A DNA stretch of 64,000 nt from Yersinia canariae (GTDB taxonomy: Bacteria; Pseudomonadota; Gammaproteobacteria; Enterobacterales; Enterobacteriaceae): contig NZ_CP043727.1 of the NCBI RefSeq assembly GCF_009831415.1, positions 3,658,001 through 3,722,000 of the forward strand. The letters run 5' to 3'. The notes under the pieces were generated by a model that was given only the letters and a program-made list of their open reading frames with translations, searched no databases and was not told the DNA's origin. Positions 36,582 through 52,520 of this stretch are shown piece by piece (the first letter of the stretch is position 1; every line of letters begins with the position of its first letter). The translations under genes were made by a program, and so were the position numbers.

Positions 36582-38251
36582 AAACTCACCACGGCCTCGT
36601 CATTAATATGTTGAGGAGGCCGTACTGTAGCGGGTAAACAAAAGCGGGCTACAGATTGATTAAGCTGAAATATTTGCTGTTGTAAAACTTCAGAGGCGCG
36701 GGTGGATTGGTCGACTAATTCAGCATTCAACCTTGTTACCTCATTAATCATGCCCACCCGCTCAGTGATATCTTCAATTCCTTTACTTTGCTCATGTGAT
36801 GCGGCCGATATTTCGGCCATCAAATCAGTCACTTTTATGACCGCATCAATGATAGCGCGTAAATTATCACCAGATCGCCCTACCAGACCAGCTCCAGCCG
36901 AGATGTATTTTGACGAGTTATCAATAAGCCGCTTAATATTTAGCGCTGAGTTGCCACTCTGATGCGCCAGCATCCCGACTTCCCGTGCAACCACAGAGAA
37001 CCCGCGCCCGTGTTCCCCTGCATGGGCGGCTTCAATCGCAGCATTTAACGCCAGAATATTGGTCTGAAAAGCCACCGATTCAATTAAAGTGATAATTTCA
37101 GCTATCTGCTGAGAGCCCTCGGAAATATCAGTCATCGAACTCACCACACTAGACATCATATCCCCGCCCTGACTGGCGATATTTTTGGCTTCATTCGCCA
37201 AATGATTCGCCTGGCCTGCACTCATTGAATTCTGCTTTACGCGCTCGGTAAGTTGATGCATGTTTAATGTTGTGGCGGCCAATGACTGTGTTTGCGATTG
37301 TGTTTGCTCAGAAATACGATGACTATCTGCGGCTATTTGATTCACACCAGACAAGATAATATCGACACCTCCACGCACCTGACTAACCAATGCCACTAAT
37401 CCTTGCTGCATTTGATATATGCTATCAGCCAATTGCCGAACCTCCCGGCTCGTAAAAGCGCTATGCTCAATCTGGCGAGATAAATCACCTGCCGCAATAA
37501 CATGAATTTGGGAAATAAGATAATTGAGTGGCCTAATAACCCAGCGAGTCACACCTAACCAGACAGAGCAAGCAAGACATAATAAAATAGCCAAAGCTAT
37601 AATAACGGCCTGCTTTGCCGAAGACAGTGAAGAAAGTAATTGGCTATCCATAACTGCGCGATTATTTTCGCTATCCTGCAAATAGCTGTAATATTTTTCG
37701 GTAAAATCACTTTGAAAACCCTGGATAGGGACTTCAAAGAAAACATCAATATTGTTATTTTTGACCAGCCCTTGCCCAAGTTCCATTAAGCCCTGATACA
37801 ACTGCTGATAACTTTCCTTCAGAGCAATAAATTCCGGTCGTTCATCATGAGCAGAAAGCAGTAACAACTGACGGTAATCGTTCTGTGACTGCTGCATAGA
37901 TTGCATCGCTTCACTCAAAAGGCTATGCCAACTCCCTTCAGATCCAGTCTCTTTGTCCTCCATATAATAGATTCCGGCCCGATTGAGTTTATCGCTGGCA
38001 ATTAATAATTCCATTCTGGCACGATCCATTAATACTTCTTGCTGATGGCTGTGGTGTGTTTTCTCAATATTGCCTTTTGTATTATCTAATATATGAGATA
38101 AATACCCTATAGAAATAAATTGTAGTAAAGAGAAAAGGCTAATAACCAAAATAAGACCCGATAAGATGCCAAACTTCCCATTGGTAAATGAACTTATATA
38201 TTTAACACCAGGCATAAATCTCATAACAAAACAGCCAGCACGAGATAACAT
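36578..38251 (-). CDS. Methyl-accepting chemotaxis protein
   Basis: A membrane chemoreceptor of about 557 residues. TM1 (around FGILSGLILVISLFSLLQF) and TM2 (around QAVIIALAILLCLACSVW) enclose a periplasmic helical-bundle sensor. A HAMP domain follows (WVIRPLNYLISQIHVIAAGD), then a signalling coiled coil with the hairpin IEAAHAGEHGRGFSVVAREV, the CheA/CheW contact. There is no C-terminal NWETF-type CheR tether. The frame opens at a TTG at 38284; ATG 38251 is preferred. The ligand is unknown. Confidence 0.9.
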   Translation of the reverse strand: MLSRAGCFVMRFMPGVKYISSFTNGKFGILSGLILVISLFSLLQFISIGYLSHILDNTKGNIEKTHHSHQQEVLMDRARMELLIASDKLNRAGIYYMEDKETGSEGSWHSLLSEAMQSMQQSQNDYRQLLLLSAHDERPEFIALKESYQQLYQGLMELGQGLVKNNNIDVFFEVPIQGFQSDFTEKYYSYLQDSENNRAVMDSQLLSSLSSAKQAVIIALAILLCLACSVWLGVTRWVIRPLNYLISQIHVIAAGDLSRQIEHSAFTSREVRQLADSIYQMQQGLVALVSQVRGGVDIILSGVNQIAADSHRISEQTQSQTQSLAATTLNMHQLTERVKQNSMSAGQANHLANEAKNIASQGGDMMSSVVSSMTDISEGSQQIAEIITLIESVAFQTNILALNAAIEAAHAGEHGRGFSVVAREVGMLAHQSGNSALNIKRLIDNSSKYISAGAGLVGRSGDNLRAIIDAVIKVTDLMAEISAASHEQSKGIEDITERVGMINEVTRLNAELVDQSTRASEVLQQQIFQLNQSVARFCLPATVRPPQHINDEAVVSF

Positions 38252-38334
38252 TATTTTCACACTTAGCGATGATTGATATATCAATATTACTCGTCAAACA
38301 TGACAGAAATATTTCAATAAATAGAATGATATAC

Positions 38335-38811
38335 TCATCTGTCAATGCGAGACAGTAAACGTAGACTATTAACAGGATGCCCCTGAGATTGTTCCGTCAA
38401 AAGAGTATTATCGCTCAATCGGTAAAAAATAGGATAGCTTACCGCATAAGGCGTATTTAAGAAGTCATACAAATAACGGTCTTTACCGCCGTCAATAGAT
38501 AAAGATAATACTTTACCAATGAAAATATTCTTCTTAGCGTCTACTACATTAAAAATAATATTACGCCTGGCTTTGATATTGTCATTTTCATCATATACAT
38601 CTGCGGATGAGCTTATTTTTCGTTTCATCACGCTAACTCTTGAATGGACATGATAAATCTCCTGTTCATGTTTAAAATCATAATTAACCTCCCAGTACCC
38701 CTCTATATCTTTCATTGGATGAATATAAGCATAAACCCTTCCAAGCTCATACCCCCCTCCTGCCCCCAGAAAAATACCTAAGCACAATATTTTCGTTATT
38801 TTTTTTCGCAT
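38335..38811 (-). CDS. Small membrane-anchored protein, possible ToxS/PsaF-like partner
   Basis: A 158-residue protein with an N-terminal hydrophobic segment (about 7-25) and a mostly beta-looking periplasmic domain (IEGYWEVNYDFKHEQEI and beyond). I do not recognise a named family with certainty. Its size, topology and 16-bp overlap with the upstream ToxR-like gene parallel ToxS and PsaF, which stabilise their membrane regulators. That role is inferred from context. It is last in the AT-rich secretion island. Confidence 0.65.
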   Translation of the reverse strand: MRKKITKILCLGIFLGAGGGYELGRVYAYIHPMKDIEGYWEVNYDFKHEQEIYHVHSRVSVMKRKISSSADVYDENDNIKARRNIIFNVVDAKKNIFIGKVLSLSIDGGKDRYLYDFLNTPYAVSYPIFYRLSDNTLLTEQSQGHPVNSLRLLSRIDR

Positions 38812-39455
38812 GCTAGTACCCCATACTGGTATTTACAGGCAATATATTCACCATTTTTTTGTTTCTTTAAAAAAACATAAGGATCTTTATTATAGGCATT
38901 TAAAAAACCCTTATCGCTAGCCTCATTTAAACCAACTAATATCGGTAGTTTTTTAACACTAATAATATTAACCTGATAGCTGTAATAAGTTATATAGAAT
39001 GACACCAATAAAAAAAGACAAGAAATTATAAAAATAGAAATCCTCCCTAAAACAGGAATGGGAACTGAGGGTAATTTAATAAGGTTATCTTCAAAATCAC
39101 CTAGGAGATTGATATTAGGCAGCAGCGGACTTGTTGATGACCCCTTAGCAATAAATTCAGGTTTAATACCAATACAATATCCTTTCTTGGGGATTGTAAT
39201 AACTAACTCATGATCTTTGTCATCAAGAGCATTGCGCAAATTACTAATGGTTTGTGTTAACGTATTATCGGTAACATAACTTCCCTCCCATACTTTCTCC
39301 TCAATATCCTCACGAGAAAGAGCAACCGGATAGTGAGAGCATAGCAAGGACAATAATTCTGATTCTTTATTTCTTATCTTGACTATCCCATCCCCTTTAC
39401 TAAGAGTTCTTTTGAGTGGAGTAAAAATAATATTTCCTATAATTATTTCATTCAT
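38796..39455 (-). CDS. ToxR-like transmembrane transcriptional regulator
   Basis: A 219-residue protein: N-terminal winged helix (about 5-100) with NKESELLSLLCSHYPVALSR and YVTDNTLTQTISNLRNAL and IPKKGYCIG, the OmpR/ToxR DNA-binding pattern. One membrane helix (about 138-157, GRISIFIISCLFLLVSFYI) leads to a ~60-residue periplasmic tail with two cysteines. The frame opens 63 bp upstream, but that adds a hydrophobic start wrong for a cytoplasmic DNA-binding domain; ATG 39455 is chosen. It overlaps the partner gene by 16 bp. PsaE/MyfE and ToxR are the closest functional comparisons. It probably senses an envelope signal and may control the gsp genes. Confidence 0.82.
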   Translation of the reverse strand: MNEIIIGNIIFTPLKRTLSKGDGIVKIRNKESELLSLLCSHYPVALSREDIEEKVWEGSYVTDNTLTQTISNLRNALDDKDHELVITIPKKGYCIGIKPEFIAKGSSTSPLLPNINLLGDFEDNLIKLPSVPIPVLGRISIFIISCLFLLVSFYITYYSYQVNIISVKKLPILVGLNEASDKGFLNAYNKDPYVFLKKQKNGEYIACKYQYGVLACEKK

Positions 39456-39801
39456 TCCATTTCTCACACTTAAAAGTATAACTTGAGAAAATAACAGAAA
39501 TAATAGAGATAACAACATTAGGTCTTAACTCAAGGAGATAAGAAAACAAAAAATAAGAATTACAACCAAAATTTAAAAGAAAATAAAAAACTCAACAATA
39601 AAGTCTATCAAGAAAACTCAATGAGTAATAAAAACAAACATTAAATGAAAAGTAAAAAATCAGCAAAGAAATTAACATGATAAATAAACAACCATAGTTT
39701 GTATGAAATTACAGCCACTCAACTTCATTACGGAATAACTCATGAATAAATGAGAAAAAACAAAACACCATAATCTTTGATAGTGGCTACAACAGTCATT
39801 A
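39456..39801. other. AT-rich spacer between gspO and the ToxR-like gene
   Basis: 346 bp with no credible gene; a 66-codon frame inside it lacks a ribosome site. Very A-rich on the plus strand. It should hold the promoter for the ToxR-like pair. No terminator after gspO is obvious. Confidence 0.5.
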
Positions 39802-40632
39802 TTAAAAAAATAAATTGATATATTTACCAATAAAAAGATATCCAACCCCAGCAAGAGAAATATAAGGACCAAAAGCTATATAATCAGTTTTCTTATTAAA
39901 TGAACAATTGATAATAATATATGCAATGATCCCAAAAAAAGAAGAAAGCAAAACCAAATAAGGAATGGCAGTTATGCCAAACCAAGCGCCTAAGGCTGCC
40001 ATTAACTTAAAGTCACCATATCCCATCCCATCAATATTCTTGAGTAATTTAAACATAACGTAAGGGAACCATAAGAATATATATCCCGCTGCTGCTCCCA
40101 TGACTGAAAGTGACAACGACGAAAAGGTATTATTTATATTAAGAATAAGCCCACACCACAGTAATGATAATGTAATACAATCAGGGAGAAGATAATGCTC
40201 AAGATCAATAAAAGTCAGAACAATAAGAGCCCAAACCAATAATAAACTACAAAAAATCAAGTAAGTATCTTTTACAAAAAAAACAGTAACCAAAGTTAAA
40301 ATAGCTGTCAATAACTCTACAAAAATATATCTAGGATTTATTTTCTGATGACAACATTTAGTCATACCACGCAAAAATAACCAACCGAACACAGGAATGT
40401 TATATCTAAGCGGTAAATCGCGATAACAATCTGGACAAAAAGATTTTGGAAAACATAAATTAAATCTATTTTTAAAAATATTTTGTTTTTTATGACTCAT
40501 TCTACTTTGAGGTACAGTATCAAAAATCATAATAGGAAGACGATAAATAATAACATTTAAAAAACTTCCAACACAGAGCCCAAGTACAGAATAAAATAAA
40601 AAGTGAGTTAAGTAATCTATATTATAAATCAT
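39802..40632 (-). CDS. gspO: Type II secretion prepilin peptidase GspO
   Basis: An A24-family membrane aspartyl peptidase that cleaves and N-methylates pseudopilins. It has 276 residues and about eight helices. The catalytic aspartates are in TFIDLEHYLLPD and GMGYGDFKLMAALGAW. The N-terminal cytoplasmic loop has CPDC, but the second pair is altered: RGMTKCCHQK in place of RGxCxxC. Such changes occur in some active homologues. It is the last gsp gene and the only prepilin peptidase in the window, so it may serve both the gsp pseudopilins and the ppd set. The ribosome site is weak. Confidence 0.92.
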   Translation of the reverse strand: MIYNIDYLTHFLFYSVLGLCVGSFLNVIIYRLPIMIFDTVPQSRMSHKKQNIFKNRFNLCFPKSFCPDCYRDLPLRYNIPVFGWLFLRGMTKCCHQKINPRYIFVELLTAILTLVTVFFVKDTYLIFCSLLLVWALIVLTFIDLEHYLLPDCITLSLLWCGLILNINNTFSSLSLSVMGAAAGYIFLWFPYVMFKLLKNIDGMGYGDFKLMAALGAWFGITAIPYLVLLSSFFGIIAYIIINCSFNKKTDYIAFGPYISLAGVGYLFIGKYINLFF

Positions 40633-40648
40633 TATTATATATACCTTG

Positions 40649-41119
40649 CTATAGTTTCCTAAGAATGATTATATTGCCGCTGATATAATCGCTGTCTTTG
40701 ATGAAATTTATATCGACATGACTGACTTCAATACTTGCGATCTGTGATAGTGCAAAGACAACATTAATAAATAGAGTAAAATCCGCGTTTTCAACGCGAA
40801 CTAAAATAGAGTCACGCGACAAGTCACTAATTTCAAACTCAGGAAAATGCTCACTAAACAATATTAACAAAGTGCTATTAACACTTTCACTATAAGGATG
40901 ACCAACACTATGGTTAGAATGTTTTTTCATTTGATACATATCGGCAAAAGATGAATGATTCATAATTTTATTTTTTAGTGAAAAGTATTCCTCTGATAGT
41001 TTTTTATTTTCAAATAAATTAAACAAAATAAATCCAGAAAAGATAGCAGTCATAACCAAGACAAAGACTACTTTAAAGTCTCTAAATACAAAATAAGGAG
41101 ATATTCTTTTAGAATTCAT
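40649..41119 (-). CDS. gspM: Type II secretion assembly platform protein GspM
   Basis: A 156-residue inner-membrane protein: short cytoplasmic N-terminus, one helix (about 17-35, VVFVLVMTAIFSGFILF), then a coiled stretch and a ferredoxin-like periplasmic domain (ILVRVENADFTLFINVVFAL). It is recognised from size, topology and position after gspL (4-bp overlap) rather than strong identity. GspM pairs with GspL to hold GspE at the membrane. Confidence 0.82.
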   Translation of the reverse strand: MNSKRISPYFVFRDFKVVFVLVMTAIFSGFILFNLFENKKLSEEYFSLKNKIMNHSSFADMYQMKKHSNHSVGHPYSESVNSTLLILFSEHFPEFEISDLSRDSILVRVENADFTLFINVVFALSQIASIEVSHVDINFIKDSDYISGNIIILRKL

Positions 41120-42291
41120 AATAAGTATTTAAATATAATATTTCTTGTTCCGTCATCGTTAATTGTTTCATCAACATTTAGATACTGTTTTTCTTCACTT
41201 ATAACATTTAACCCCATGCCATTCTCATCCGATTTATTTATATTAAAACTAATTTCACTCTGTTCATTATCAAAAGAAATACTATTTATAACGATATTCA
41301 GATCACCTACAAGCAAATGTGTAGCGTGCAATAATCTAATGAAGTCAGGTTTAATAACACTATAACCTCGATAATCAACTTTATCATTAATACTCTCATT
41401 ATCCATAGACTGCTGTAGTAGTGGGTATTGAACATGGATATCTTGTAAAGATTCATTTAGCATATGAATATCTCGTAATATATTATTTTTATCAACCCAA
41501 GAATTAAAAAAAATAACTATCGATAATAAAAAAAACAAGTTAACCGTTCTAAAAAATGAAAAGGTTTTAATCATCTGTTTATCATGTCGATGATATCGCC
41601 CACTTAATAAATTAGCACTATTATTATCAATGTTATCGGCCATAATGCGTAACACATCGCAATAATCTGCTGAATGGGCGTTTTCCTCTCTACTATTAAT
41701 AGAAATAAATATATTTTCATCACCAGAAAAATAGGATGATAAACATAGGCTATCAAATATATCATCCCTGAGTACAAATCCTGATTCTCCACTATCTCTT
41801 ATTAACCATTCATTATTCAGCTTAATAGAAAAGTATTTATCACCGTCAAATGGCAGTGTTAATACATCTGGTATCATAACGTTTGTATATATACCGACAT
41901 CCTTTAGCCACCCCAACCAAAGATTCATTAATTTATGTTCAATTGCTGTTATATAACAAAAAAAATCGTCCGATTTTAATACCACAATATGAAAATCGTC
42001 TATATTACTTACAATGGTAGGCTCAATAGAAAATGCTATAGAAGATTCTTTATTTAAAATTTTTTTACTTATTAACTTAATCCTCCTAAAAATAACAAAA
42101 CTCGATGAAACTAGAACCGTCACATTATAATTAAAAAATGAAGAAAGACTTTTCAACTCAGAATAGTTATTTATACGGCCACATTGTTTATTTTTTCTCT
42201 CCCCTGTGATCGAATACCAATAGACGGGGTCACTTATGTCACTACCAAGCCTAATAATCAGTGTTCCCAGGGGGGGACTACTTTTATTCAT
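41116..42291 (-). CDS. gspL: Type II secretion protein GspL
   Basis: A 391-residue bitopic protein. The cytoplasmic domain (about 1-245) is of the actin-like GspL type that binds GspE; opening LGTLIIRLGSDISDPVYWYS is characteristic. A single helix (about 247-263) leads to a periplasmic domain that should pair with GspM. The ATG has a GGAGG site and overlaps gspK by 8 bp. Divergence is high, so assignment relies partly on gene order. Confidence 0.85.
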   Translation of the reverse strand: MNKSSPPLGTLIIRLGSDISDPVYWYSITGERKNKQCGRINNYSELKSLSSFFNYNVTVLVSSSFVIFRRIKLISKKILNKESSIAFSIEPTIVSNIDDFHIVVLKSDDFFCYITAIEHKLMNLWLGWLKDVGIYTNVMIPDVLTLPFDGDKYFSIKLNNEWLIRDSGESGFVLRDDIFDSLCLSSYFSGDENIFISINSREENAHSADYCDVLRIMADNIDNNSANLLSGRYHRHDKQMIKTFSFFRTVNLFFLLSIVIFFNSWVDKNNILRDIHMLNESLQDIHVQYPLLQQSMDNESINDKVDYRGYSVIKPDFIRLLHATHLLVGDLNIVINSISFDNEQSEISFNINKSDENGMGLNVISEEKQYLNVDETINDDGTRNIIFKYLL

Positions 42292-43240
42292 TAAAGCTAA
42301 ACCTCCGCCGCAACACAGTGATATCTTTTCCTTTCACATGGAAAAGACTTGTCAATTGGTAATCCTCACCTTCCATACCCAATTTAAAAACAGATATAAA
42401 GTAGTACTCATCATGCGTGAAATATAAAATCCTATTTTCTAGTAATTTATTTATCATATCGGTATCAACGAATGAACTCTTCAGAAGAAAATCTAAGAAA
42501 GACTCAACAGTTACCCACCCTTTATCAGGTTTAGATAGTAATATTTTAGAAGTATCACTTTCATTGATCTCATTCATGAGAACCGCTTGTATTAACTTAC
42601 TATGTTTATCTTCAAGCATATTTATATTAATTAGTAATGTATTATCGATTCTGGAACAAAACAGCGGTGCTATTTGTAAAAAAACCTCATCTCCAATATT
42701 GAGTGACTTATCAATTGAATTATTCAGTTGTAGATAGTTTTCTAAAGAATGATGCTCATGAGCCATACTCCCGAGGATAGAATCGGCCGGAGAAGAATGA
42801 GCGAAATTTGTTATGATTTTATTGAGTACTGATGAAGTTATATTGTTTAGCTGTAAGATGTATTTTAACACTAGCCAAGGATAGAGTGCATTATTATCAA
42901 TATTTGTCGAGTAATAATTAATAGTATTTATATTAAAACAATTGGTCATATCAATTAATCTATAACTTATCTCTTTGTTATTTAGCATGATAATATTCTG
43001 AGAGTTTATAAACAGATCTGAAAATCCGACTAAATATTCTTGAGTTGAGTATTTTTTAAAGTAAAAATTTGAAAAAAAATCTTCTGCACCTAGTAATAGG
43101 TGTTTTTCAAATTGTCTTTTTTTGCTATTTCCAACCAAAAAAATGGTCTCGGATAGATAAAAATAAGTGGTAGAAAGCATTATACTCATCAGCAAAATGG
43201 TAGATAAAACAAGTAACAAAGCAATACCCCGTTGTTGCAC
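42284..43240 (-). CDS. gspK: Type II secretion minor pseudopilin GspK
   Basis: The large minor pseudopilin at the pseudopilus tip, 318 residues. The start is GTG (43240) with AAGGATGAG upstream. The leader is only MQQRG, followed by IALLLVLSTILLMSIML without the usual glutamate at +5, as is normal for GspK. The long alpha-domain insertion and the sequence LIDMTNCFNINTI (the GspK block that normally reads as a D-N metal region) are present. It lies 14 bp after gspJ and overlaps gspL. Confidence 0.9.
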   Translation of the reverse strand: MQQRGIALLLVLSTILLMSIMLSTTYFYLSETIFLVGNSKKRQFEKHLLLGAEDFFSNFYFKKYSTQEYLVGFSDLFINSQNIIMLNNKEISYRLIDMTNCFNINTINYYSTNIDNNALYPWLVLKYILQLNNITSSVLNKIITNFAHSSPADSILGSMAHEHHSLENYLQLNNSIDKSLNIGDEVFLQIAPLFCSRIDNTLLININMLEDKHSKLIQAVLMNEINESDTSKILLSKPDKGWVTVESFLDFLLKSSFVDTDMINKLLENRILYFTHDEYYFISVFKLGMEGEDYQLTSLFHVKGKDITVLRRRFSFNE

Positions 43241-43254
43241 TATCTCATCCTTAA

Positions 43255-43842
43255 TTAAATAGTATAATTTAATAAAATGAAAACCTTTCTTACTACTCCG
43301 ATATTTTCCAGCGAAATAACCAACTCAACGCCCTCAGGTAGATAGGCTGACTCATTCCACTCCTTTAACCATCTATTTTTATGATAGACTTGGATATGAA
43401 ATGCCGTAACACCATCAATAACTTTAGAAATCTTAGGTTGTTTTTTATTTATTCCATACGACAGCTTTTCTAAACTATTATTTCTTAATCTATACCCTAG
43501 TGTTTGTGATCGAGAATAATAATTAGTATTAGTGCTAATGTCGCATAAAAATAAAATACCAAAATCATCACTTTCCAAGAGAGACTTACCTATTTTAACT
43601 CCACTATTCAGTATATTATTATCTTGTGGGTCAGAGTATATAATAGCATGCGAAATATCCTGCTCTAGTATATCAAAAACTCTTTGCAATCTATTCATTT
43701 GTTTTAATTTTTTATTAACTATAACACTTCCTTTACTGGTAACCATGATGGATTGGTAAACAGTTAAACTTATCAAAGTAAAAATCATCAGAGCCAATAG
43801 AACCTCCAATAATGTAAAACCTCGGATAAATTTTTTATTCAT
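43255..43842 (-). CDS. gspJ: Type II secretion minor pseudopilin GspJ
   Basis: A 195-residue pseudopilin from ATG 43842: MNKKFIRG, then FTLLEVLLALMIFTLISL (cleavage after G8, glutamate at +5). The body has LGYRLRNNSLEKLSYG and GVTAFHIQVYHKNRWLKEW, typical of GspJ. The longer frame from 43923 would bury the motif and run far into gspI; the chosen ATG overlaps gspI by 8 bp with AAGGA a little upstream. Forms the tip complex with GspI and GspK. Confidence 0.92.
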   Translation of the reverse strand: MNKKFIRGFTLLEVLLALMIFTLISLTVYQSIMVTSKGSVIVNKKLKQMNRLQRVFDILEQDISHAIIYSDPQDNNILNSGVKIGKSLLESDDFGILFLCDISTNTNYYSRSQTLGYRLRNNSLEKLSYGINKKQPKISKVIDGVTAFHIQVYHKNRWLKEWNESAYLPEGVELVISLENIGVVRKVFILLNYTI

Positions 43843-44197
43843 CAATGACACGGTATCCTTCAAGGATAAATTCAGGAGCATTACTATTTTCGTGGCTATG
43901 GACTTCAACCGTAATAATTCCAATGGACTTAATTATTTTTTCTCGTGATTGCCAATACCATATTTTATTACTAATAAAATCACTACCCTGTAGCCAATTT
44001 TCAGTTTGTTCTACCTTTGTCAGATTAATTTCTACTAAGACATTATCTGCTACCCAAGAGGCCATTATTTTATTTTCTAGTGTTTTCACACGTATAAGTT
44101 GTTCACTCATAATGGCCATAATACCTATGCCAACAATAGAAAAAATGGCCATTGCGAGTATAGACTCTAATAATGTAAAACCCGTGCAATATCGCAA
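43835..44197 (-). CDS. gspI: Type II secretion minor pseudopilin GspI
   Basis: A 120-residue pseudopilin: MRYCTG, then FTLLESILAMAIFSIVGIG (cleavage after G6). The conserved GspI block ASWVADNVLVEINL follows. The start is TTG at 44197; no ATG lies before the motif, so the TTG is probably real. It follows gspG after 54 bp; gspH, which normally lies between them, is missing. Confidence 0.9.
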   Translation of the reverse strand: MRYCTGFTLLESILAMAIFSIVGIGIMAIMSEQLIRVKTLENKIMASWVADNVLVEINLTKVEQTENWLQGSDFISNKIWYWQSREKIIKSIGIITVEVHSHENSNAPEFILEGYRVIDE

Positions 44198-44232
44198 ATT
44201 GATACCTATTTATAATTCAATAAAATCTCATA

Positions 44233-44267
44233 AGTTATTAGTTATTAGTTATTAGTTATTAGTTATT
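44233..44267. repeat. Five tandem copies of a 7-bp repeat across the gspG stop
   Basis: AGTTATT occurs five times in a row with no mismatch (44233-44267). On the minus strand it codes the last residues of GspG (ITNN) and its TAA, and fills most of the gspG-gspI spacer. Slippage by one unit changes spacing by 7 bp. Confidence 0.95.
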
Positions 44268-44701
44268 GAACTCTCAACTAAAGATGTGGACCAATTTCCT
44301 ATATCATCGTCAGTCCCTACTTCTCTATCAGGCCCGGTAGAGAATATATCAATCTCTTCATGTCGACCAGGGTTATTCATTTGATAAGAGTTCCCCCATG
44401 GATCTTTTGGTAATCGTTTAATATAACCGCTCTTAGGATATATTCGAGGCAGTGGTAAATCTATCGGCTTCACAACTAATGAAATAAGGCCTTGTAACTC
44501 AGTTGGATAATAACCATTATCCAATTTGTACATATCTAATGTGTTCTCTATAGCAGCAATATCGCTTAATGCCTTTTGCTGGTCAGCTCTATTCTTATTG
44601 GACATCACACTGGGGATTGTCAGGCTAGCAAGCAAACCTAATATGATAATAACCACCATCATTTCTAATAATGTAAAACCATACGATTTTATATTTACCA
44701 T
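44252..44701 (-). CDS. gspG: Type II secretion major pseudopilin GspG
   Basis: The main pseudopilus subunit, 149 residues. MVNIKSYG is followed by FTLLEMMVVIIILGLLASLT (cleavage after G8, glutamate at +5). The GspG signature PKDPWGNSYQ and the calcium-site region GPDREVGTDDDIGNW are both present. AAGGATAACC precedes the ATG. The C-terminal residues are written by the heptamer repeat at 44233-44267. Confidence 0.97.
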   Translation of the reverse strand: MVNIKSYGFTLLEMMVVIIILGLLASLTIPSVMSNKNRADQQKALSDIAAIENTLDMYKLDNGYYPTELQGLISLVVKPIDLPLPRIYPKSGYIKRLPKDPWGNSYQMNNPGRHEEIDIFSTGPDREVGTDDDIGNWSTSLVESSITNN

Positions 44702-44720
44702 GGTTATCCTTAGATGAAAA

Positions 44721-45929
44721 TCAAAGAATTAGATCATTCATTTCCAATATTGGTTGAAATATTGCCAAAACAATAAAGAATATAAACCCCGCCATAAATA
44801 GCATTATTATAGGCTCTAGCAATATTATAAATATATTTATCTGATCAACTATATCTTGCTCTAGCATGCCTGTTATTTTCTCCAAAATAATATCTAATTT
44901 GCCACTGCGTTCACCGGATGCGATCATATGTGAAATCATAGGAGAAAAGACATGGCTATTAGCCAAAGACACTGACAGACTCCCTCCTTCGCTAACTAGT
45001 TTAAGAGCACACTCTAGTTGTTGTTTAATATATAAATTAGTCACTACGCCACCACTAATTTCCATTGTTTTGATCAAACTTACACCATTTGAATTTAAAA
45101 TAGCCATCATCCTCAAGTATCGAGATATATTTAACTTAAATAGTGTATTTCCTAATATTGGTAACTTTAAGTAATAATACTCGAACAGTATATTTATCTT
45201 TTTCATCTTAGATATACCGTACCCTCCCATAAACAACACAGCAAAACCTGCAATAATAAATAGAATATTATCCTCAAGCCAATAGCTACTTACCATAAGA
45301 ATACGTGTGGATAATGGTAGCGTTTTATCATAAGAAACAAACTGTTCAATTATATTTGGAATTATTACAGATAAAAGTATACCGATAAGACCGATAGATA
45401 TTATAATTAAAATTATCGGATATATTAATGCCTGAGCTATTTTATTTTTTATCTTATATACTTGCTCAATATGATCGGCAAGATTAGATAAAACCTCACT
45501 TAAGTTCCCCGAGAGTTCACCAGCCGCAATCATGGATCTGTAGAGAGAATTAAAAACTGTTGGGAATTGCGAGAGTGAATCAGAAAGTGAATAGCCTTCA
45601 AGGATTTTTTTTCTTACCTCATGAATCACACTATTGACATGACTCTTCTCACTTTGTTTCTCAATTAACTCTAACGCCTCATTCAGAGGGATTGCCGCAT
45701 TGACTAAAATAGACAATTGTCTGGTAATTAAAATAAGATCTATATGACTTGTTTTTTTTAAAACCTTTATAAATCTGGCGTATGAACTTACATGTTTAAT
45801 CTTTACACTTAATAAATACAGTTTTCTTTGATAAATAATATGTCTGGCTGTTAATAAATTTTCAGCCTCAACATTGCCTTTTACCTTCCCCCCTTTAGCA
45901 TCGATGGCCGTATAATTAAATACAGGCAT
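44721..45929 (-). CDS. gspF: Type II secretion inner-membrane platform protein GspF
   Basis: The polytopic platform protein that works with the GspE motor. It has 402 residues, with two repeated cytoplasmic domains (LILITRQLSILVNAAIPLNE, then LRMMAILNSNGVSLIKTMEI) and three membrane helices, the last at LFMAGFIFFIVLAIFQPIL. Start ATG 45929 has AGAGGATAAGT and overlaps gspE by 14 bp. Confidence 0.96.
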   Translation of the reverse strand: MPVFNYTAIDAKGGKVKGNVEAENLLTARHIIYQRKLYLLSVKIKHVSSYARFIKVLKKTSHIDLILITRQLSILVNAAIPLNEALELIEKQSEKSHVNSVIHEVRKKILEGYSLSDSLSQFPTVFNSLYRSMIAAGELSGNLSEVLSNLADHIEQVYKIKNKIAQALIYPIILIIISIGLIGILLSVIIPNIIEQFVSYDKTLPLSTRILMVSSYWLEDNILFIIAGFAVLFMGGYGISKMKKINILFEYYYLKLPILGNTLFKLNISRYLRMMAILNSNGVSLIKTMEISGGVVTNLYIKQQLECALKLVSEGGSLSVSLANSHVFSPMISHMIASGERSGKLDIILEKITGMLEQDIVDQINIFIILLEPIIMLFMAGFIFFIVLAIFQPILEMNDLIL

Positions 45930-47421
45930 ACTTATCCTCTAAGCTTACTCTCATTACTTCCTCTATTGTTGTAAGGCCCACCATCACTTTATCAATCCCA
46001 TCTTGCTCTATGCTACGCATATATCCCTTAGCTAAGATAGTTAAATCAAGTTCACTTTTTCCTTTATAAATACCCTCCCGAAAATTATTATCAATAATCA
46101 GTATTTCATGCAAGGCTATCCGCCCACGATAGCCTACTTTATTACATATGTTACAACCGACAGAATGAAACCCGTATCCTTCCTCCGCTATTTCTTCATT
46201 AATACAAAATTCTTGTAAAATATCTTGTCGATGGAAACATTGCTGCCGGCATCCAGTACATAATCGGCGAACCAGCCGCTGGGAGAGTACCGCCAACAAT
46301 GAACTTGATAACATGAATGGCTCAACCCCCATATCTTTGAGTCTGGTTACAGCACCAATAGCACTATTAGCATGTAATGTTGATAAAACTAAATGTCCTG
46401 TTAAAGAAGCTTGTACTGCTATTTGTGCAGTTTCTACATCTCGAATTTCACCGATAAGAATAACATCAGGATCTTGGCGCAATATTGCTCTCAGACTACG
46501 CGAAAACGTCATATCAATCTTCGTATTAACCTGAGTCTGGGAGATTCCCTCTATATCAAACTCAATGGGATCCTCCACTGTCATAATATTTCTTTCACTT
46601 GCATTTATTCCCATTAAAGCAGCATACAGTGTGGTGCTTTTGCCCGCCCCTGTGGGCCCAACAATCAATATAATGCCATGAGGTTTAAGGACTAATGACT
46701 TCATTAAATGACAGTTTTTTTGTGACATCCCTAAAGAGTCTAGATCTAGTTTAAGACTGTTCTTATCCAATAGCCGCATGACCACACGCTCACCATGATT
46801 CACTGGCAGTACTGAAACTCGCACATCCAAAGCTTTCCCAGCCAAACTTAGTGCAATGCGACCATCCTGTGGGATCCTTTTCTCAGCAATATCTAACTTT
46901 GCCATGATTTTAATCCGCGACACTAATAATAACGCCACCCGCCGTTGTAGTTCTAATATGTTTTTTAATACACCATCAATACGAAATCGTATAATAATCT
47001 TCTCTTCGAAAGATTCTATATGTATATCTGATGCCAACTCCTTAATTGCCTCAGCTAAAATTGTATTGATTAATTTTATTACGGGCGCTTCATTATCACT
47101 ATCGAGTAAGTCCCCGCTAACGGGAAACTCACTATTAAATGAGTAAATAGCTATTTCTTCACTTATAGAATTCATTATTTTATGTGATTGCACAGAGCTA
47201 TTTTGATATACAGTTGTAAGACTATTTTCAAACTCAGTATCAGTGACGAAATGAAGCCCAACAGGCCTATTCCCGACTCTGTTACCTTCAAGTATTGCCT
47301 CAAGAGAAGCTGACTTACGGCAGATGAGCTGATAGCCATGCTCAACGGGTGATAATATTACACCATTATCCTTTGCCCAACTAAATTTTAATGGTAGTGA
47401 TTCTGCTTTATCTCGGCTCAT
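45916..47421 (-). CDS. gspE: Type II secretion ATPase GspE
   Basis: The cytoplasmic motor that drives pseudopilus growth. It has 501 residues. Walker A, GPTGAGKST, is at about 255-263; the Asp box TVEDPIE at 281-287; Walker B in ILIGEIRD at about 321-328; the His box in TGHLVLSTLHAN at about 341-352. A four-cysteine zinc site is formed by CTGC (388-391) and CNIC downstream, as in true GspE and PilB. It overlaps gspD and gspF by 14 bp each. Confidence 0.97.
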   Translation of the reverse strand: MSRDKAESLPLKFSWAKDNGVILSPVEHGYQLICRKSASLEAILEGNRVGNRPVGLHFVTDTEFENSLTTVYQNSSVQSHKIMNSISEEIAIYSFNSEFPVSGDLLDSDNEAPVIKLINTILAEAIKELASDIHIESFEEKIIIRFRIDGVLKNILELQRRVALLLVSRIKIMAKLDIAEKRIPQDGRIALSLAGKALDVRVSVLPVNHGERVVMRLLDKNSLKLDLDSLGMSQKNCHLMKSLVLKPHGIILIVGPTGAGKSTTLYAALMGINASERNIMTVEDPIEFDIEGISQTQVNTKIDMTFSRSLRAILRQDPDVILIGEIRDVETAQIAVQASLTGHLVLSTLHANSAIGAVTRLKDMGVEPFMLSSSLLAVLSQRLVRRLCTGCRQQCFHRQDILQEFCINEEIAEEGYGFHSVGCNICNKVGYRGRIALHEILIIDNNFREGIYKGKSELDLTILAKGYMRSIEQDGIDKVMVGLTTIEEVMRVSLEDKYACI

Positions 47422-49405
47422 GATTTACTCCCACCATCGCATAGAACTTTACTATGTCATTTTTAAGTTCATTAAAAACGTCATAGTTTATTTTATTTGA
47501 CACTATTCCAATTGGACGTCTTATATCTGTATTAACAGAATGTAGGTTACTATGTTCTGTGTATTTATTTGCAGTTACTTGACTATAGTCACTTGTCTCT
47601 CTCAGTATCGTTGGCCTAATAAAGAGAATCAGATTGCTTTTTTCAATCTTTTCTTTACTTTGCCTAAATAATCCACCGATCAAAGGTATGTCCCCTAAGA
47701 ATGGAACCTTATTTATTACCTTATTAAGTTTTTTATCTAGCAATCCGCCCACGACTACAGTTTCTCCGCTTTTAACCAATACTGCATTATTAACAACCCG
47801 CTTATTAAAAACTGATCCTAGGTTATTAGCATTAACATCAGAATTATCAGCTACACTTGATACTTCTTGTCGAATTTCCAGCAGGACTGAATCACCTTTA
47901 TTTATCTGTGGCTTGACCTTCAACATGACACCCACAGATTGTCTTGAAATCGAGTTATAGACTTTGTCTGTTGCCGTTGTTTGCGACGAGGTCAATACAG
48001 GAACCTCTTGCCCGACATTAAATTCAGCCTCCATATTATCCAATGTAACAATACTCGGAGTTGCTAGAATATTATTATTTGAATTGGTAGCTAATGCAGT
48101 AAAAAGACCATTCCAATTTCCTTTATAAAAGCCCGAAGTTAATCCGGAGATCGCCAGTGGTATAGAGTCTCCAATATTATTATTCTCGTTTCTACTCTCT
48201 GATTTATTGAGAAAATTAACTCCGCCGTGAAATTTATTAGCCCATTGAATACCAAGATTGAGACCCTCTCCATTCTGGGTTTCAACTATAATTGCTTCCA
48301 CCAACACTTGGGCACGTCTTATATCCAGTTTTTCAATAACCTGATCTAATTCTTTCATTAGCCGGGGATGGGCAGTAATGACTAAAGCATTTGTTTGGTC
48401 GTATGCCTTAATGGACATATTCGTGATGTTATTCTTCCCTGTCATTTTCCCAGGTTTATTGCTTTGGACTCCGAGACTGACACCATTCAAGACATCCAAT
48501 AACTTTGATGCCTGAGCATATTTCATATAAATAACTTTAGTACTTCCATCACTGTCTTGTTGATGGTCAAGCTTCTTTATTATTTGCAGCGCTCTTTTTC
48601 TGACATGGTGCTCACCACTGATTAAAATTGAATTTGTTCGTTCATCTGCAATTACGTGTCCAACATTCAATGACTCTGATTTGGCCGTCATATTTACTGG
48701 ATTTATGACTTGATTGACTAATTTAATAATATCTGCCGCAACTGCATGATTCAGTTGATAGAGTTCAACTTCGCTATCTCCCGGCTGGTCTAATGTACTA
48801 ATTATAGTATATAAGCGATTGACTACTGCTGCGCGCCCTGTAATTAATATTACATTTGAGGGGTCATAATGAATAATACTGCCCGACTCTGAATTATCAT
48901 TGAGCTGACGAAGTAACGGCGCCAGTTTTTTAGCTAATATATGTTTAAGTTTAAATACACGATTAATAAGTTCGTCGCCATGGGTTTCACCTTCATTCTT
49001 TTGCAGAGGAGCAACCGAACTTTTTGCGCGTTTTGCGGGTATAACCTTTAAGATATTATTGGGCATTTCAACTACTGTATAGCCATAGACATCAAGTACA
49101 TTTAAAAAGAATTGATAGTATTTTTCTTCGTCTAACTGCTCATAGCTACGAACACTGACTAGCCCTTGAACTTTAGGATCTATAATTATAGTTTTATTGA
49201 TGTTTTTACTTACAGTATGGATAAATTCTTTTATATTAACGTCTCTAAAAGAGACAGAAAAAGTTGCATTATTACCATATGACTTCATAGGCAAGGTGGT
49301 CGCTAGAATTATCACTCCAAATAAATAAATATAAAAACGCTTAAATATCATAAAAGAAGGAGCAAATTCAATATACTTTATTAAGATTTTATTATTGCAA
49401 TGCAT
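47408..49405 (-). CDS. gspD: Type II secretion outer-membrane secretin GspD
   Basis: The outer-membrane channel, 665 residues. Domains: long N-region signal peptide (cleavage near KSYG-NN, about residue 44), N0 (FSVSFRDVNIKEFIHTVS), N1-N3 repeats, and the secretin core with VGQEVPVLTSSQ, GVMLKVKPQINKGDSVLLE and VPFLGDIPLIGGLFRQ. ATG 49405 is chosen because AAAGGGG lies just upstream; ATG 49351 would give a shorter signal but has no ribosome site. The C-terminal tail after the core is about 60 residues and could be the pilotin-binding end; no gspS is seen. Confidence 0.96.
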   Translation of the reverse strand: MHCNNKILIKYIEFAPSFMIFKRFYIYLFGVIILATTLPMKSYGNNATFSVSFRDVNIKEFIHTVSKNINKTIIIDPKVQGLVSVRSYEQLDEEKYYQFFLNVLDVYGYTVVEMPNNILKVIPAKRAKSSVAPLQKNEGETHGDELINRVFKLKHILAKKLAPLLRQLNDNSESGSIIHYDPSNVILITGRAAVVNRLYTIISTLDQPGDSEVELYQLNHAVAADIIKLVNQVINPVNMTAKSESLNVGHVIADERTNSILISGEHHVRKRALQIIKKLDHQQDSDGSTKVIYMKYAQASKLLDVLNGVSLGVQSNKPGKMTGKNNITNMSIKAYDQTNALVITAHPRLMKELDQVIEKLDIRRAQVLVEAIIVETQNGEGLNLGIQWANKFHGGVNFLNKSESRNENNNIGDSIPLAISGLTSGFYKGNWNGLFTALATNSNNNILATPSIVTLDNMEAEFNVGQEVPVLTSSQTTATDKVYNSISRQSVGVMLKVKPQINKGDSVLLEIRQEVSSVADNSDVNANNLGSVFNKRVVNNAVLVKSGETVVVGGLLDKKLNKVINKVPFLGDIPLIGGLFRQSKEKIEKSNLILFIRPTILRETSDYSQVTANKYTEHSNLHSVNTDIRRPIGIVSNKINYDVFNELKNDIVKFYAMVGVNHEPR

Positions 49406-49440
49406 AACAACCCCTTTATGGAGAACTTAGGGTATGATTA

Positions 49441-49977
49441 TTATAATATCACCAAGGAGTAGTATGATTTATCCTCTTTAATTATAATTTTATCCTTTAA
49501 TATTCTCACTATAGTAATATTAGTATCACTCTCTATTTCGTCATGAATTAAATATAACCTTTGTTTACCGTTAACTTCTATAATTGCAATCGATTTATCG
49601 CTCTCAGAATATACTAATACACCGACCAACTTCAAACCACCGGTATAGATTGGTGAATTTATAATGTCGACATCTTCCTTCTTTACATTTTTTAACTCTT
49701 TATCTCTTCTTTTAAATAGGTCACTGTTTTTAATTTCATTAGTCATTTTAGTATTATTGATCAAAGTATAACTTTCTACGCTTTCACCTTCATATAGTTG
49801 TGGAGGGGTTCTTTTCTGTGAGTTCATTACTGTTTGAATAAAAACATTAACTTGATAGAGGATACATAATATTATAATAATATCCAGTATATATCCTCTT
49901 CCATTAACTAATCTTTGATAGGGTGTTATGACTATTCGATTAAAAAGTGATAACACCCTGACCTCTCTCTTATTCAC
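49441..49977 (-). CDS. gspC: Type II secretion protein GspC, short form without PDZ domain
   Basis: A 178-residue inner-membrane linker between the platform and secretin. One helix (about 29-47, YILDIIIILCILYQVNVF) and an HR domain (about 90-175, KLVGVLVYSESDKSIAIIEV) are seen. The C-terminal PDZ or coiled-coil domain of most GspC proteins is missing. The start is GTG at 49977 with a poor ribosome site. It lies 40 bp after the winged-helix regulator and 35 bp before gspD. Confidence 0.88.
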   Translation of the reverse strand: MNKREVRVLSLFNRIVITPYQRLVNGRGYILDIIIILCILYQVNVFIQTVMNSQKRTPPQLYEGESVESYTLINNTKMTNEIKNSDLFKRRDKELKNVKKEDVDIINSPIYTGGLKLVGVLVYSESDKSIAIIEVNGKQRLYLIHDEIESDTNITIVRILKDKIIIKEDKSYYSLVIL

Positions 49978-50017
49978 AATACATTCAGTATATATCAGAA
50001 TAATAAATTATCTATTT

Positions 50018-50434
50018 CTAATAACCAATAAACCTATCACTCATTTTATTAGACACCATCGAATTCAGTATCCCAGAATCTAATCTAAGACCATATCTGT
50101 TAATGGTTTTGACGATCCCGTCGGGAATACCTGCATTCTTCAAATGTACTCTAAATTTATGTATCAATTGATGATAATTATTATCAGAAATGCTTTTATG
50201 ATTTTCATACCAGACAACCTTAATAATGTCTTGTTTCCTATTTACATCATTAAATAAACACATAACCAATCTCTTTTGTTTTTCATTAATATCTATAGTT
50301 AATTTCTTAGAGTGGAAATGTATTTTGTTCATACAGCAATCCAGTGATATCTCTTTTTCATAATCAATCACCCCTTTTCCATTAATATCAATGAACTTAC
50401 TACCAGAAACAACAGAGACTGTATCAACATACAT
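50018..50434 (-). CDS. Soluble ToxR/OmpR-type winged-helix regulator at head of gsp operon
   Basis: A 138-residue protein without membrane helix. The C-terminal two thirds read as a ToxR/CadC-class winged helix: EKQKRLVMCLFNDVNRKQDI, DNNYHQLIHKFRVHLKNAGI and IVKTINRYGLRL. No receiver domain is present, so it is a stand-alone DNA-binding protein. AGGGG precedes the ATG. As first gene before gspC, it probably acts on this operon, and an inverted repeat (50477-50495) lies just upstream of its start. The exact family name is not known to me. Confidence 0.8.
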   Translation of the reverse strand: MYVDTVSVVSGSKFIDINGKGVIDYEKEISLDCCMNKIHFHSKKLTIDINEKQKRLVMCLFNDVNRKQDIIKVVWYENHKSISDNNYHQLIHKFRVHLKNAGIPDGIVKTINRYGLRLDSGILNSMVSNKMSDRFIGY

Positions 50435-50476
50435 AAATAACCCCTACAAATATATTCACTCAGTTAATATAAATAA

Positions 50477-50495
50477 ATCACACTGCACATGTGAT
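50477..50495. promoter_or_regulatory. Inverted repeat before the winged-helix regulator
   Basis: ATCACA, 7 bp, TGTGAT: a perfect 6-bp dyad 43 bp upstream of the regulator ATG. The half-sites are in the reverse order of a CRP site, so a different protein is more likely, possibly the regulator itself. Confidence 0.4.
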
Positions 50496-50876
50496 AAGAG
50501 AACTAGTGATTAGCATTGCATTTACTTAATGAATAAAACCAATTAAATTATATTTTTTGATTATATTTAATGTATTAAAATTAATTTTAATGTAAAAACA
50601 CACTCCCAATCCGGGTATAACGAAAAAAGCGATAGTGTATGATGATAAAATTAAACATAACATTACCAACCATATTCAAATAGCCCAGACCAATGAGAGA
50701 TGGCATTTACATTTAGAATATTTATATCTTGCTATATTCATCTCGAAAACCACAGGTAATCACTGAGTTAACTTACAATAATAATTAAAAAATTCAAGAA
50801 ATAAATATCATTTAATAATATCAAATCAAGTTATTTACTATTGACACATAATAATAACATTGCATGTTATCTTTAT

Positions 50877-50958
50877 CTATAATTCTTATTTATTGGTTGT
50901 CTGGCTAGCATAATCATTAAATAACTTAAACATACCCATTATTCTATATGGGTTTTTC
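50877..50958 (+). ncRNA. Candidate small RNA (promoter plus terminator, no ORF)
   Basis: TTGACA (50841-50846), an 18-bp gap and TGTTAT (50865-50870) make a strong sigma-70 promoter on the plus strand. About 60-85 nt later the dyad ACCCAT / ATGGGT (50934-50953) is followed by TTTTT. The predicted transcript of about 82 nt has no ATG and lies between two minus-strand genes, antisense to the likely leader of the gsp operon. Not a known RNA to me. Confidence 0.4.
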
Positions 50959-51084
50959 TATCTTATCGTGCAAGCTTTGCTTTAATCATATAACCATAAA
51001 ATTTAATCACCACCAAGCATCTTATATCAATAAAAAAGATCACAGGATAAATAAATTAATATTAACACGTAAATGAATTTCTGA

Positions 51085-51114
51085 TATTCCCCTTGATACA
51101 ACGCAAGGGGAATA
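51085..51114 (-). terminator. Hairpin downstream of carbonic anhydrase gene
   Basis: Perfect 11-bp stem TATTCCCCTTG / CAAGGGGAATA with an 8-nt loop, 15 bp past the stop. No U-run follows on the minus strand, so termination strength is uncertain. Confidence 0.55.
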
Positions 51115-51129
51115 GTAAAACACGAGTTA

Positions 51130-51885
51130 TTACATGAAGAACTCGACTTCACCACCATTTAGGTTATACATACTACCGATTATTTTTACTTTCCCTTCTT
51201 TCTCTAATTTATTAATTATTTCACTATTTTTTCGGATCTCTTCGATAGTATGCTTCACATTATTCTTCGCAACAGCATCAACATACTTTTCATTCTTGCT
51301 ACTCTTCTCACCATCAAACTGAGTTGCCTCAATCGCAGGCTTAATTTTATTCAGTAGGCCAGTCAAATTACCAAGCTCAACATGATCAATTGCACCCTTG
51401 ATAGCGCCGCAAGCTGTATGTCCCATCACCACAATGACTTTTGCTCCCGCAGCTGCGCAAGCAAATTCCAGACTACCTAATAAATCATCATTAGAAATGT
51501 TGCCGGCAATCCTAGCATTGAATGTTTCACCAATTCCTGTGTCCAGAACAATTTCAGCAGGTGCTCGGGAATCAATACAACTCAGAATAACTGCGGCCGG
51601 GAATTGTCCATCAGCGCTACTTCGCTTTTGCGCCAGATAATCGTGTTGCTGCATTTTTCCTGAAACGAATCTTTTATTACCTTGCTTCAATCCTTCCACT
51701 ATCTGATCTGGGGTTAATTTATTCCGCTCTTCTTGTGTTAGGGAGGCAGCATATGATATTTGAGGTAGCCCTAGTCCAATCCCGCCTATAACACCCGCGG
51801 CGGTAATGCCTAAAGCTGCTTTTAGCACGTTCCGTCGGCTACTGGGATGGCTATCTTCTGAACAACAACCCGTTAGCTTACTCAT
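51130..51885 (-). CDS. Tat-exported beta-class carbonic anhydrase
   Basis: Interconverts CO2 and bicarbonate. It has 251 residues. The beta-class zinc ligands are C103, H156 and C159 (LSCIDSR and MGHTACGAIKG), with the D105-R107 dyad. The N-terminus is a twin-arginine signal: SSRRNVLKAALGITAAG with RR at 17-18, then a long hydrophobic stretch and ISYA-AS. So it folds in the cytoplasm and is moved to the periplasm, unlike housekeeping Can. It borders the type II secretion island, which can pass on Tat-exported proteins, so it is a possible substrate; this is inference. Confidence 0.92.
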   Translation of the reverse strand: MSKLTGCCSEDSHPSSRRNVLKAALGITAAGVIGGIGLGLPQISYAASLTQEERNKLTPDQIVEGLKQGNKRFVSGKMQQHDYLAQKRSSADGQFPAAVILSCIDSRAPAEIVLDTGIGETFNARIAGNISNDDLLGSLEFACAAAGAKVIVVMGHTACGAIKGAIDHVELGNLTGLLNKIKPAIEATQFDGEKSSKNEKYVDAVAKNNVKHTIEEIRKNSEIINKLEKEGKVKIIGSMYNLNGGEVEFFM

Positions 51886-52034
51886 ACTCTCTCCTTGAAA
51901 CTATTGTTGTTATTTTCGATACTGCATACTTAATGAGCAGCCTATTAAATGTAGTACATCCCATTTGTTTTACGCGATGGCCGATGTAGAGATTGTGAAA
52001 AATCAATCTATGCTCAAATTTCTTATCATTCGCG

Positions 52035-52418
52035 TTATATACCGCGATGAAGCTCTTGATGATGGTCTCTCATCCATTGCGCCAATGAGTCCAGTGTTGG
52101 CTGCAATGTTTTTCCTAACAGGGTAATTTCATATTCAACCCGTGGTGGCACTTCGGCATAAACCTTGCGATGCACCAAACCACGTTGCTCAAAGGCTCGC
52201 AGTTGCCGGGTAAGCTCTTTTTGGGTAATAGGGGCAATTGCCCGCTGTAGCTCACCAAATCGGATGGGGGCAGCAGTCACAATCAAACGATAGAGAATTG
52301 GAATTGCCCACTTCCCAGCAATAAGTTCAACAAATTGCACCATCGGGCATTTTTCTTCGGCAATGTCATTGTCGAGTACCAATTTATTTTTAGGTGTGAG
52401 GGGCTGATAGGCTGTCAT
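52035..52418 (-). CDS. HxlR-family transcriptional regulator
   Basis: A 127-residue winged-helix protein. The HxlR pattern is clear: CPMVQFVELIAGKWAIPILY with one conserved cysteine (C24), then RFGELQRAIAPITQKELTRQ and PPRVEYEITLLG. Members such as YodB, QorR and HypR sense quinones, aldehydes or disulfide stress through that cysteine. It is divergent from an SDR-MDR oxidoreductase pair across 102 bp, the standard regulator-target layout. Confidence 0.92.
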   Translation of the reverse strand: MTAYQPLTPKNKLVLDNDIAEEKCPMVQFVELIAGKWAIPILYRLIVTAAPIRFGELQRAIAPITQKELTRQLRAFEQRGLVHRKVYAEVPPRVEYEITLLGKTLQPTLDSLAQWMRDHHQELHRGI

Positions 52419-52446
52419 TAGATTCCTGTTGCATCATTAGTATCAA

Positions 52447-52486
52447 ATTGGTACCTACTATACTTTAGATACTTTTGTATTAAAAA
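52447..52486. promoter_or_regulatory. Possible HxlR operators
   Basis: Around 52439-52486 the spacer has GTATCAAATTGGTAC (a GTA/TAC dyad) and then TACTATACTTTAGATAC, resembling the paired dyads bound by HxlR-type regulators. Assignment is by pattern only. Confidence 0.35.
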
Positions 52487-52520
52487 TGGTCTTCCACTGC
52501 TATTAATTGGATGACTCACC

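What the first reader, a model, noticed from the sequence alone, without database searches (positions are those of the whole stretch)
38335..50434. Type II secretion island bracketed by two different ToxR-family regulators
An AT-rich block of eleven gsp genes begins with a soluble winged-helix protein (50018-50434) and is followed by a ToxR-like membrane regulator plus a small membrane-anchored partner (38335-39455), all on one strand. ToxR/ToxS and PsaE/PsaF pairs are known to govern virulence factors by sensing the envelope. Two such proteins around a secretion machine suggest dedicated environmental control, perhaps a relay in which the membrane protein switches on the soluble one. The base composition differs by eye from the flanking backbone, pointing to transfer. 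It may correspond to the second Yersinia type II system (Yts2), but regulation through these proteins is not something I know to be described.
Basis: partly seen in the sequence, partly recalled or inferred. Interest (0 to 1): 0.7.

Follow-up and report, generated by a model that had tools for sequence, protein, structure and literature searches.

The report
Yersinia secretion locus with membrane sensor
This is a known Yersinia protein-secretion gene cluster whose upstream switch is already described, but its far end carries a ToxR/ToxS-type membrane sensor pair that is kept across the genus, even in some species that have lost the secretion machine, so the sensor probably serves more than that machine.

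The parts
50018..50434 (-). pypC: soluble wHTH regulator, 138 aa
   Evidence: Trans_reg_C 13.8 bits, below cut-off; 90-99% identical in 15 of the 19 Yersinia relatives that have it, 76-83% in the other 4
50435..51129 (-). 695-bp AT-rich pypC upstream region with conserved blocks at about -395..-320 and -140..-1
   Evidence: alignments of 15 genomes and 17 genomes
49921..49958 (-). hairpin GGGTGTTAT...ATAACACCC over the likely gspC start (GTG at 49956-49954), SD-like GAGAGG just upstream
   Evidence: found by pattern in 16 of 23 loci; in those 16, 94.2% of cells pair and 3 pairs have changes on both sides; present in the 3 machine-less loci; control statistics moderate
49441..49977 (-). gspC (true start probably 49956; inference)
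   Evidence: T2SSC 49.4 bits; where tblastn matches start and the aligned start region
47408..49405 (-). gspD secretin
   Evidence: ORF; homologues in Yersinia
45916..47421 (-). gspE ATPase
   Evidence: ORF; synteny
44721..45929 (-). gspF
   Evidence: ORF; T2SSF in genome scan
44252..44701 (-). gspG major pseudopilin
   Evidence: ORF; N_methyl in genome scan
43835..44197 (-). gspI
   Evidence: TIGR01707 62.5 bits
43255..43923 (-). gspJ
   Evidence: TIGR01711 112.3 bits
42284..43240 (-). gspK
   Evidence: NF037980 73.5 bits, below its 130 cut-off; T2SSK 18.8, below 24.2
41116..42291 (-). gspL
   Evidence: T2SSL 134.7 bits
40649..41119 (-). gspM, assigned by position
   Evidence: no Pfam or NCBIfam match; Yts2 GspM described as of low homology (PMC3521999)
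39802..40632 (-). gspO prepilin peptidase
   Evidence: Peptidase_A24 87.4 bits; one of two A24 matches found in the genome
38796..39455 (-). ToxR-like membrane-tethered regulator (219 aa): wHTH, TM helix 135-160, periplasmic domain with Cys207/Cys216
38335..38811 (-). ToxS/VtrC-like partner (158 aa): TM helix 2-30, lipocalin-like barrel; start codon inside the ToxR-like Cys codon

Best explanation
The locus is the Yts2 type II secretion system with two layers of transcription control. PypC, a soluble wHTH protein, is the known local activator. At the 3' end sits a co-component sensor of the ToxR/ToxS-VtrA/VtrC class: a membrane-tethered wHTH regulator and an overlapping, probably translationally coupled partner with a lipocalin-like periplasmic barrel. 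Inferred working: the two periplasmic domains pair, the partner reads an envelope signal (small hydrophobic ligand, pH or disulfide state) and shields the regulator from proteolysis, and the cytoplasmic wHTH then activates AT-rich promoters. Because the cassette, pypC and gspO survive where gspC-M is gone, its targets are probably not only the machine genes. Shown here: gene content, predicted fold class, genus-wide linkage, constraint after loss of the machine for pypC, gspO and partner. Inferred: heterodimer, signal, targets. From print: PypC action on yts2.
Against: No conserved site shared by the pypC and toxR upstream regions. Periplasmic-domain and partner distances do not correlate beyond phylogeny (partial -0.09; 378 of 500 permutations as high). 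The ToxR-like frame is interrupted in 4 of the 24 Yersinia genomes in which it was found (G010, G011, G014, G022), one of them machine-less, and the partner in G022. The best Foldseek E is only 2.4e-3. The regulator model is weak (pLDDT 75, pTM 0.47). No expression data here.
Confidence: 0.6

Rival explanations
1. Relay: the membrane pair switches on pypC, and PypC switches on gsp.
For: pypC has a long AT-rich upstream region with conserved blocks; pypC and cassette are kept together in the 3 machine-less Yersinia loci; published PypC autoregulation and yts2C activation (PMC3521999).
Against: No conserved shared motif: AACTSARTGADTA occurs without mismatch upstream of both genes in the window, but it was built from those very sites and the toxR-side copy is not conserved. 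Cassette frames open without pypC in G015 and at the locus of G127.
Confidence: 0.25
2. Neighbour only: the cassette serves a remote regulon (adhesins, pili) and its place beside gsp is historical.
For: Retention without gspC-M in G011, G016, G024, and of parts of the module in L056, L058, L059, L060 outside the genus; in the 16 loci measured the gspO-toxR gap is 162-673 bp in 15 and 3157 bp in one, room for a separate promoter.
Against: Same order, with single genes missing, in 18 Yersinia loci that hold the machine and in L057 from another genus. Regulator distances follow some gsp genes beyond phylogeny (periplasmic domain with gspO 0.32, 13 of 500 permutations; DNA-binding domain with gspE 0.29, 11 of 500; two of nine comparisons).
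Confidence: 0.3
3. The machine-less loci are decay in progress, so retention says nothing about function.
For: ToxR-like frame broken in G011 and in the loci L058-L060; G015 shows ongoing erosion by an IS1-like element (identified by eye).
Against: G024 and G011 share the junction, so the loss probably predates their split, yet partner, pypC and gspO remain constrained between them.
Confidence: 0.15
4. gspO is kept because it is the cell's general prepilin peptidase, independently of the regulators.
For: The window genome has two A24 matches, this GspO and a short one that by size and place looks Tad-type, and three N_methyl matches outside this locus. Locus gspO was not found in 5 of 23 scorable Yersinia genomes (G001, G007, G009, G010, G012) and all 5 have another GspO at 43-46% identity; 5 of the 18 with locus gspO do.
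Against: G011, G016 and G024 keep it although they have another GspO. In G005, whose only GspO this is, the match holds one stop. Few independent events.
Confidence: 0.6

Closest known systems
Yts2 type II secretion system with PypC (Y. enterocolitica; PMC3521999)
   Same: gsp cluster, gspH absent in several species, odd GspM, pypC at the 5' end
   Different: the 3' regulator pair is not mentioned in section 7 of that review; ToxR has 0 occurrences in the paper
ToxR/ToxS and VtrA/VtrC co-component systems (PMC9214523)
   Same: domain order, Cys pair, start codon inside the Cys codon, lipocalin-like partner
   Different: no sequence match of the partner profile to any solved chain and no convincing Pfam family in 32 members; linked to a T2SS
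PsaE/PsaF (PMC8407435, passages seen)
   Same: membrane wHTH with two periplasmic Cys, overlapping partner ORF, same genus
   Different: regulates psaA; PsaF's periplasmic region has nine His, this partner five after residue 30 (2-8 in 32 relatives)
Y. pseudotuberculosis BZ17_3564/3565 and BZ17_3283/3282 (PMC9214523 Table 1)
   Same: unassigned cassettes of this class; one of them may be this pair
   Different: identity not resolved here; 'T2SS' and 'type II secretion' have 0 occurrences in that paper's main text

Membership tests
ToxR/ToxS-VtrA/VtrC co-component cassette | OmpR-type wHTH at the N terminus | tested here: met
   PF00486 60 bits vs 26.2 cut-off; Foldseek CadC, ToxR top
ToxR/ToxS-VtrA/VtrC co-component cassette | single TM helix followed by a C-terminal periplasmic domain | tested here: met
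   model helix 135-160, then strand-helix-three strands; prediction only, pLDDT 75; topology not tested
[quoted passage not shown]
   C207 and C216 in at least 90% of 33 proteins; a disulfide was not tested
ToxR/ToxS-VtrA/VtrC co-component cassette | partner ORF overlapping, start codon inside the Cys codon | tested here: met
   window (frame translated) and TGC/TGT at that place in 24 of 24 loci printed, 5 of them duplicate records; L034 left out because its partner match does not begin at residue 1
ToxR/ToxS-VtrA/VtrC co-component cassette | partner with N-terminal TM helix and lipocalin-like barrel | tested here: met
ToxR/ToxS-VtrA/VtrC co-component cassette | heterodimer that senses a signal and acts on DNA | not testable with these tools
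   needs biochemistry
FidL-like subfamily | conserved disulfide in the partner; FidL sequence match | tested here: not met
   0 Cys after residue 30 in the window partner, 0-3 in 32; no FidL family among the Pfam hits of 32 members at E <= 0.5
PsaE/PsaF pair | sequence relation of the partner to PsaF, His-rich pH sensor | not tested
   PsaF sequence not compared; only His counts taken
Yts2 T2SS | gsp cluster preceded by PypC, gspH absent in several species, atypical GspM | tested here: met
   description in PMC3521999. The name pypC rests on position and description; the published PypC sequence was not compared
Yts2 T2SS | no gspS | not tested
   no gspS search was run

The most novel reading that the evidence does not exclude
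PypC, GspO and the co-component pair form an old regulatory module whose main business is not the Yts2 machine: the machine is a disposable client, lost at least once and probably twice in Yersinia and again in symbiont-like relatives, while the module lives on under purifying selection and steers other surface or secreted factors from an envelope signal.
Probability: 0.33. Interest if true: 0.65.

Novelty: new member of a known kind. Interest (0 to 1): 0.42.

Why it matters
The 2012 review reports only weak yts2 transcription at 27 C, no growth condition that raises it and no known substrate (PMC3521999, section 7). A conserved envelope sensor encoded inside the locus gives a concrete handle for finding that condition. 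The species that kept the sensor but lost the machine are natural tests of what else it controls.

Tried and rejected
Shared DNA motif: AACTSARTGADTA matched upstream of pypC twice and of toxR once in the window (the pattern was made from these sites, so its count against shuffles is circular), but the toxR-side copy is absent in relatives; dropped as a relay site. Promoter scan: 76 sites against 75.8 expected; terminator-like 12 against 4.6 (sd 2.4), none used as evidence. Mirror-tree of periplasmic domain and partner: negative; two of the other eight comparisons, with gsp genes, rose. Rfam: no match at gathering score in 36000-52500. Intramembrane-protease role of GspO on the regulator: considered, not pursued, because five Yersinia loci with the regulator lack gspO and a housekeeping role fits better. 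FidL membership: not met. Partner against PADLOC: no match. Solved-structure sequence search with the partner profile: no hit.

Limits. The hairpin rows were chosen by a pattern that demands both arm ends; 7 of 23 loci did not match and were dropped (G001, G006, G009, G012, G116, G194, G237), though most of those seven fold some other hairpin there. On the 16 kept, 14 of 500 shuffles reach the pairing, 88 of 500 the double changes, 420 of 500 the number of pair types, 28 of 500 the covariation score, and one slid version equals that score (0.151 against 0.150). The hairpin overlaps the probable gspC start, so coding constraint may contribute. Genes with under 80% coverage or a stop were dropped from the dN/dS counts as listed; dS is saturated for part of the pairs. 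Whether the machine was lost once or twice is not settled: four trees need two changes, but starred branches force only one.
Full report
What is there. On the minus strand from 50434 down to 38335 the window carries a 138-aa soluble regulator, eleven gsp genes (C, D, E, F, G, I, J, K, L, M, O), a membrane-tethered wHTH regulator and a membrane-anchored partner. Pfam confirms C, I, J, L and O above cut-off and K below it; M has no match and is named by position. No gspH lies between G and I. GC is 0.27-0.40 per kb from 38 to 51 kb, 0.40 in the next kb and 0.42-0.53 in the rest of the window; GC3 is 0.22-0.32 in 14 island genes against 0.34-0.48 in 8 flanking genes. No tRNA lies in the window.

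Identity and prior knowledge. The genome is a 4.71-Mb Yersinia whose partner protein is closest (83%) to one that databases give to Y. hibernica (P0002); its own name was not established. The cluster matches Yts2 as reviewed in PMC3521999 (abstract, section 7 and search passages seen): gspH missing in several species, a GspM of low homology, and the regulator PypC at the 5' end. That review says that PypC overproduction raises yts2C transcription fourfold and that PypC belongs with PypA and PypB in the network controlling hreP. The one original paper that I looked up was not held. So one of the two regulators, and its control of the machine, is in print. A search for pypC with Yersinia gave that review alone; Yersinia, type II secretion and ToxR-like together gave two papers, on other genera by their titles (listing only). 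I saw no report of the 3' pair at this locus.

Distribution. In 60 genomes (25 Yersinia) the partner is found in 25 of 25 Yersinia and 0 of 35 others. The ToxR-like orthologue is found in 24 of 25; G002's contig ends at the partner. It is interrupted in 4 of the 24 (G010, G011, G014, G022) and cut by a contig end in G018. PypC at 76% or more is found in 20 of 25; of the five without it, four have contig ends inside the locus and one, G015, has gspD cut next to a transposase ORF that looks to me like IS1, followed by ars-like genes. The machine stands beside the pair in 18 genomes, is missing in 3 (G011, G016, G024) and cannot be judged in 4 (G002, G014, G017, G018). The best GspD left in the three is 51% identical, beside another PypC-like gene in G016 and so presumably Yts1. 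A search of 392 family genomes at E <= 1e-25 found the regulator in 11, five of them outside Yersinia in four genera. L057 has a whole pypC-gsp-cassette cluster. L059 and L060 keep pypC, gspO and the partner with gsp remnants and a broken regulator. L058 has a broken pypC and regulator with the partner. L056 keeps gspO, regulator and partner only. A database entry named as the symbiont Williamhamiltonella (Hamiltonella) is 47% identical to the regulator. Small genome sizes suggest that some of these hosts are symbionts; this is inference.

Retention under constraint. G024 and G011 share a deletion junction (225 and 226 bp between pypC and gspO) that differs from G016's (139 bp). Four gene trees need two changes of the label, though starred branches force only one. 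Between G024 and G011 dN/dS is 0.05 for pypC, 0.12 for the partner and 0.24 for gspO, against 0.07 for hxlR and sdr, so selection probably continued after the loss. The regulator is interrupted in G011 and could not be counted there; between G016 and G024 it is 0.20. Across the core Yersinia, median identity is 0.93 for PypC (17 genomes), against 0.75-0.90 for five flanking genes, 0.43 for GspC, 0.39 for GspL, 0.58 for the regulator and 0.57 for the partner. PypC is thus far more conserved than most of the machine it is known to control.

gspO. The window genome has two A24 matches, this GspO and a short one that looks Tad-type, and three N_methyl matches outside the locus. Of 23 scorable Yersinia genomes, 5 lack gspO at the locus and all 5 have another GspO; of the 18 with it, 5 do. 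A housekeeping prepilin-peptidase role explains its retention more simply than any link to the regulators, though G005's only GspO match holds one stop.

Regulatory DNA. The pypC upstream region has conserved blocks at about -395..-320 and -140..-1. Over the likely gspC start lies a hairpin (49921-49958), found by pattern in 16 of 23 loci. In those 16, 94.2% of cells pair, against 36-70% when slid; three pairs change on both sides, and all three machine-less loci have it. The covariation score is not better than in one slid version, so the evidence for selection on pairing is moderate. The exact pattern occurs once in each of 6 of 27 genomes. It could hold the gspC start in a stem or end the pypC message. 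No motif shared by the pypC and toxR upstream regions is conserved.

Transfer. The low GC recurs at this locus in the 20 relatives measured and the dsbA-mbl side of the site is common to them, so the island has been there since the genus arose or nearly so.

Verdict. A known secretion locus with a known 5' regulator, plus a ToxR/ToxS-class cassette that I did not find described here. The relay and dedicated control are not shown, and the distribution argues for a wider role of the regulators.

Noticed in passing
window 49921-49958: Hairpin at the probable gspC start (GTG inside the 5' arm, SD-like GAGAGG upstream), also present in loci that lost gspC; possible translational switch or message end, evidence moderate.
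   Followed up: partly
L018 12001-14803: In the nearest relative (G015) gspD is cut next to an IS1-like transposase ORF and ars-like genes follow; pypC and gspC were not found while gspE-O and the cassette remain.
   Followed up: partly
L056 16431-17165: A GspO of 244 aa that appears to lack the cysteine-rich cytoplasmic stretch (A24_N_bact only 19 bits) but keeps the peptidase domain, beside an open regulator pair and no secretion genes at the locus.
   Followed up: no
P0092 (database protein): The Y. pestis entry of the ToxR-like protein ends in residues that resemble the partner's N terminus, so the gene looks broken there.
   Followed up: no
P0094 (database protein): A full-length relative of the regulator (47%) is recorded from the symbiont Williamhamiltonella (Hamiltonella) defendens.
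   Followed up: no
G002, G014, G017, G018 at this locus: Four draft assemblies break inside the AT-rich island and no Yts2-type GspD or PypC was found elsewhere in them; sequencing drop-out or real loss cannot be told apart.
   Followed up: no
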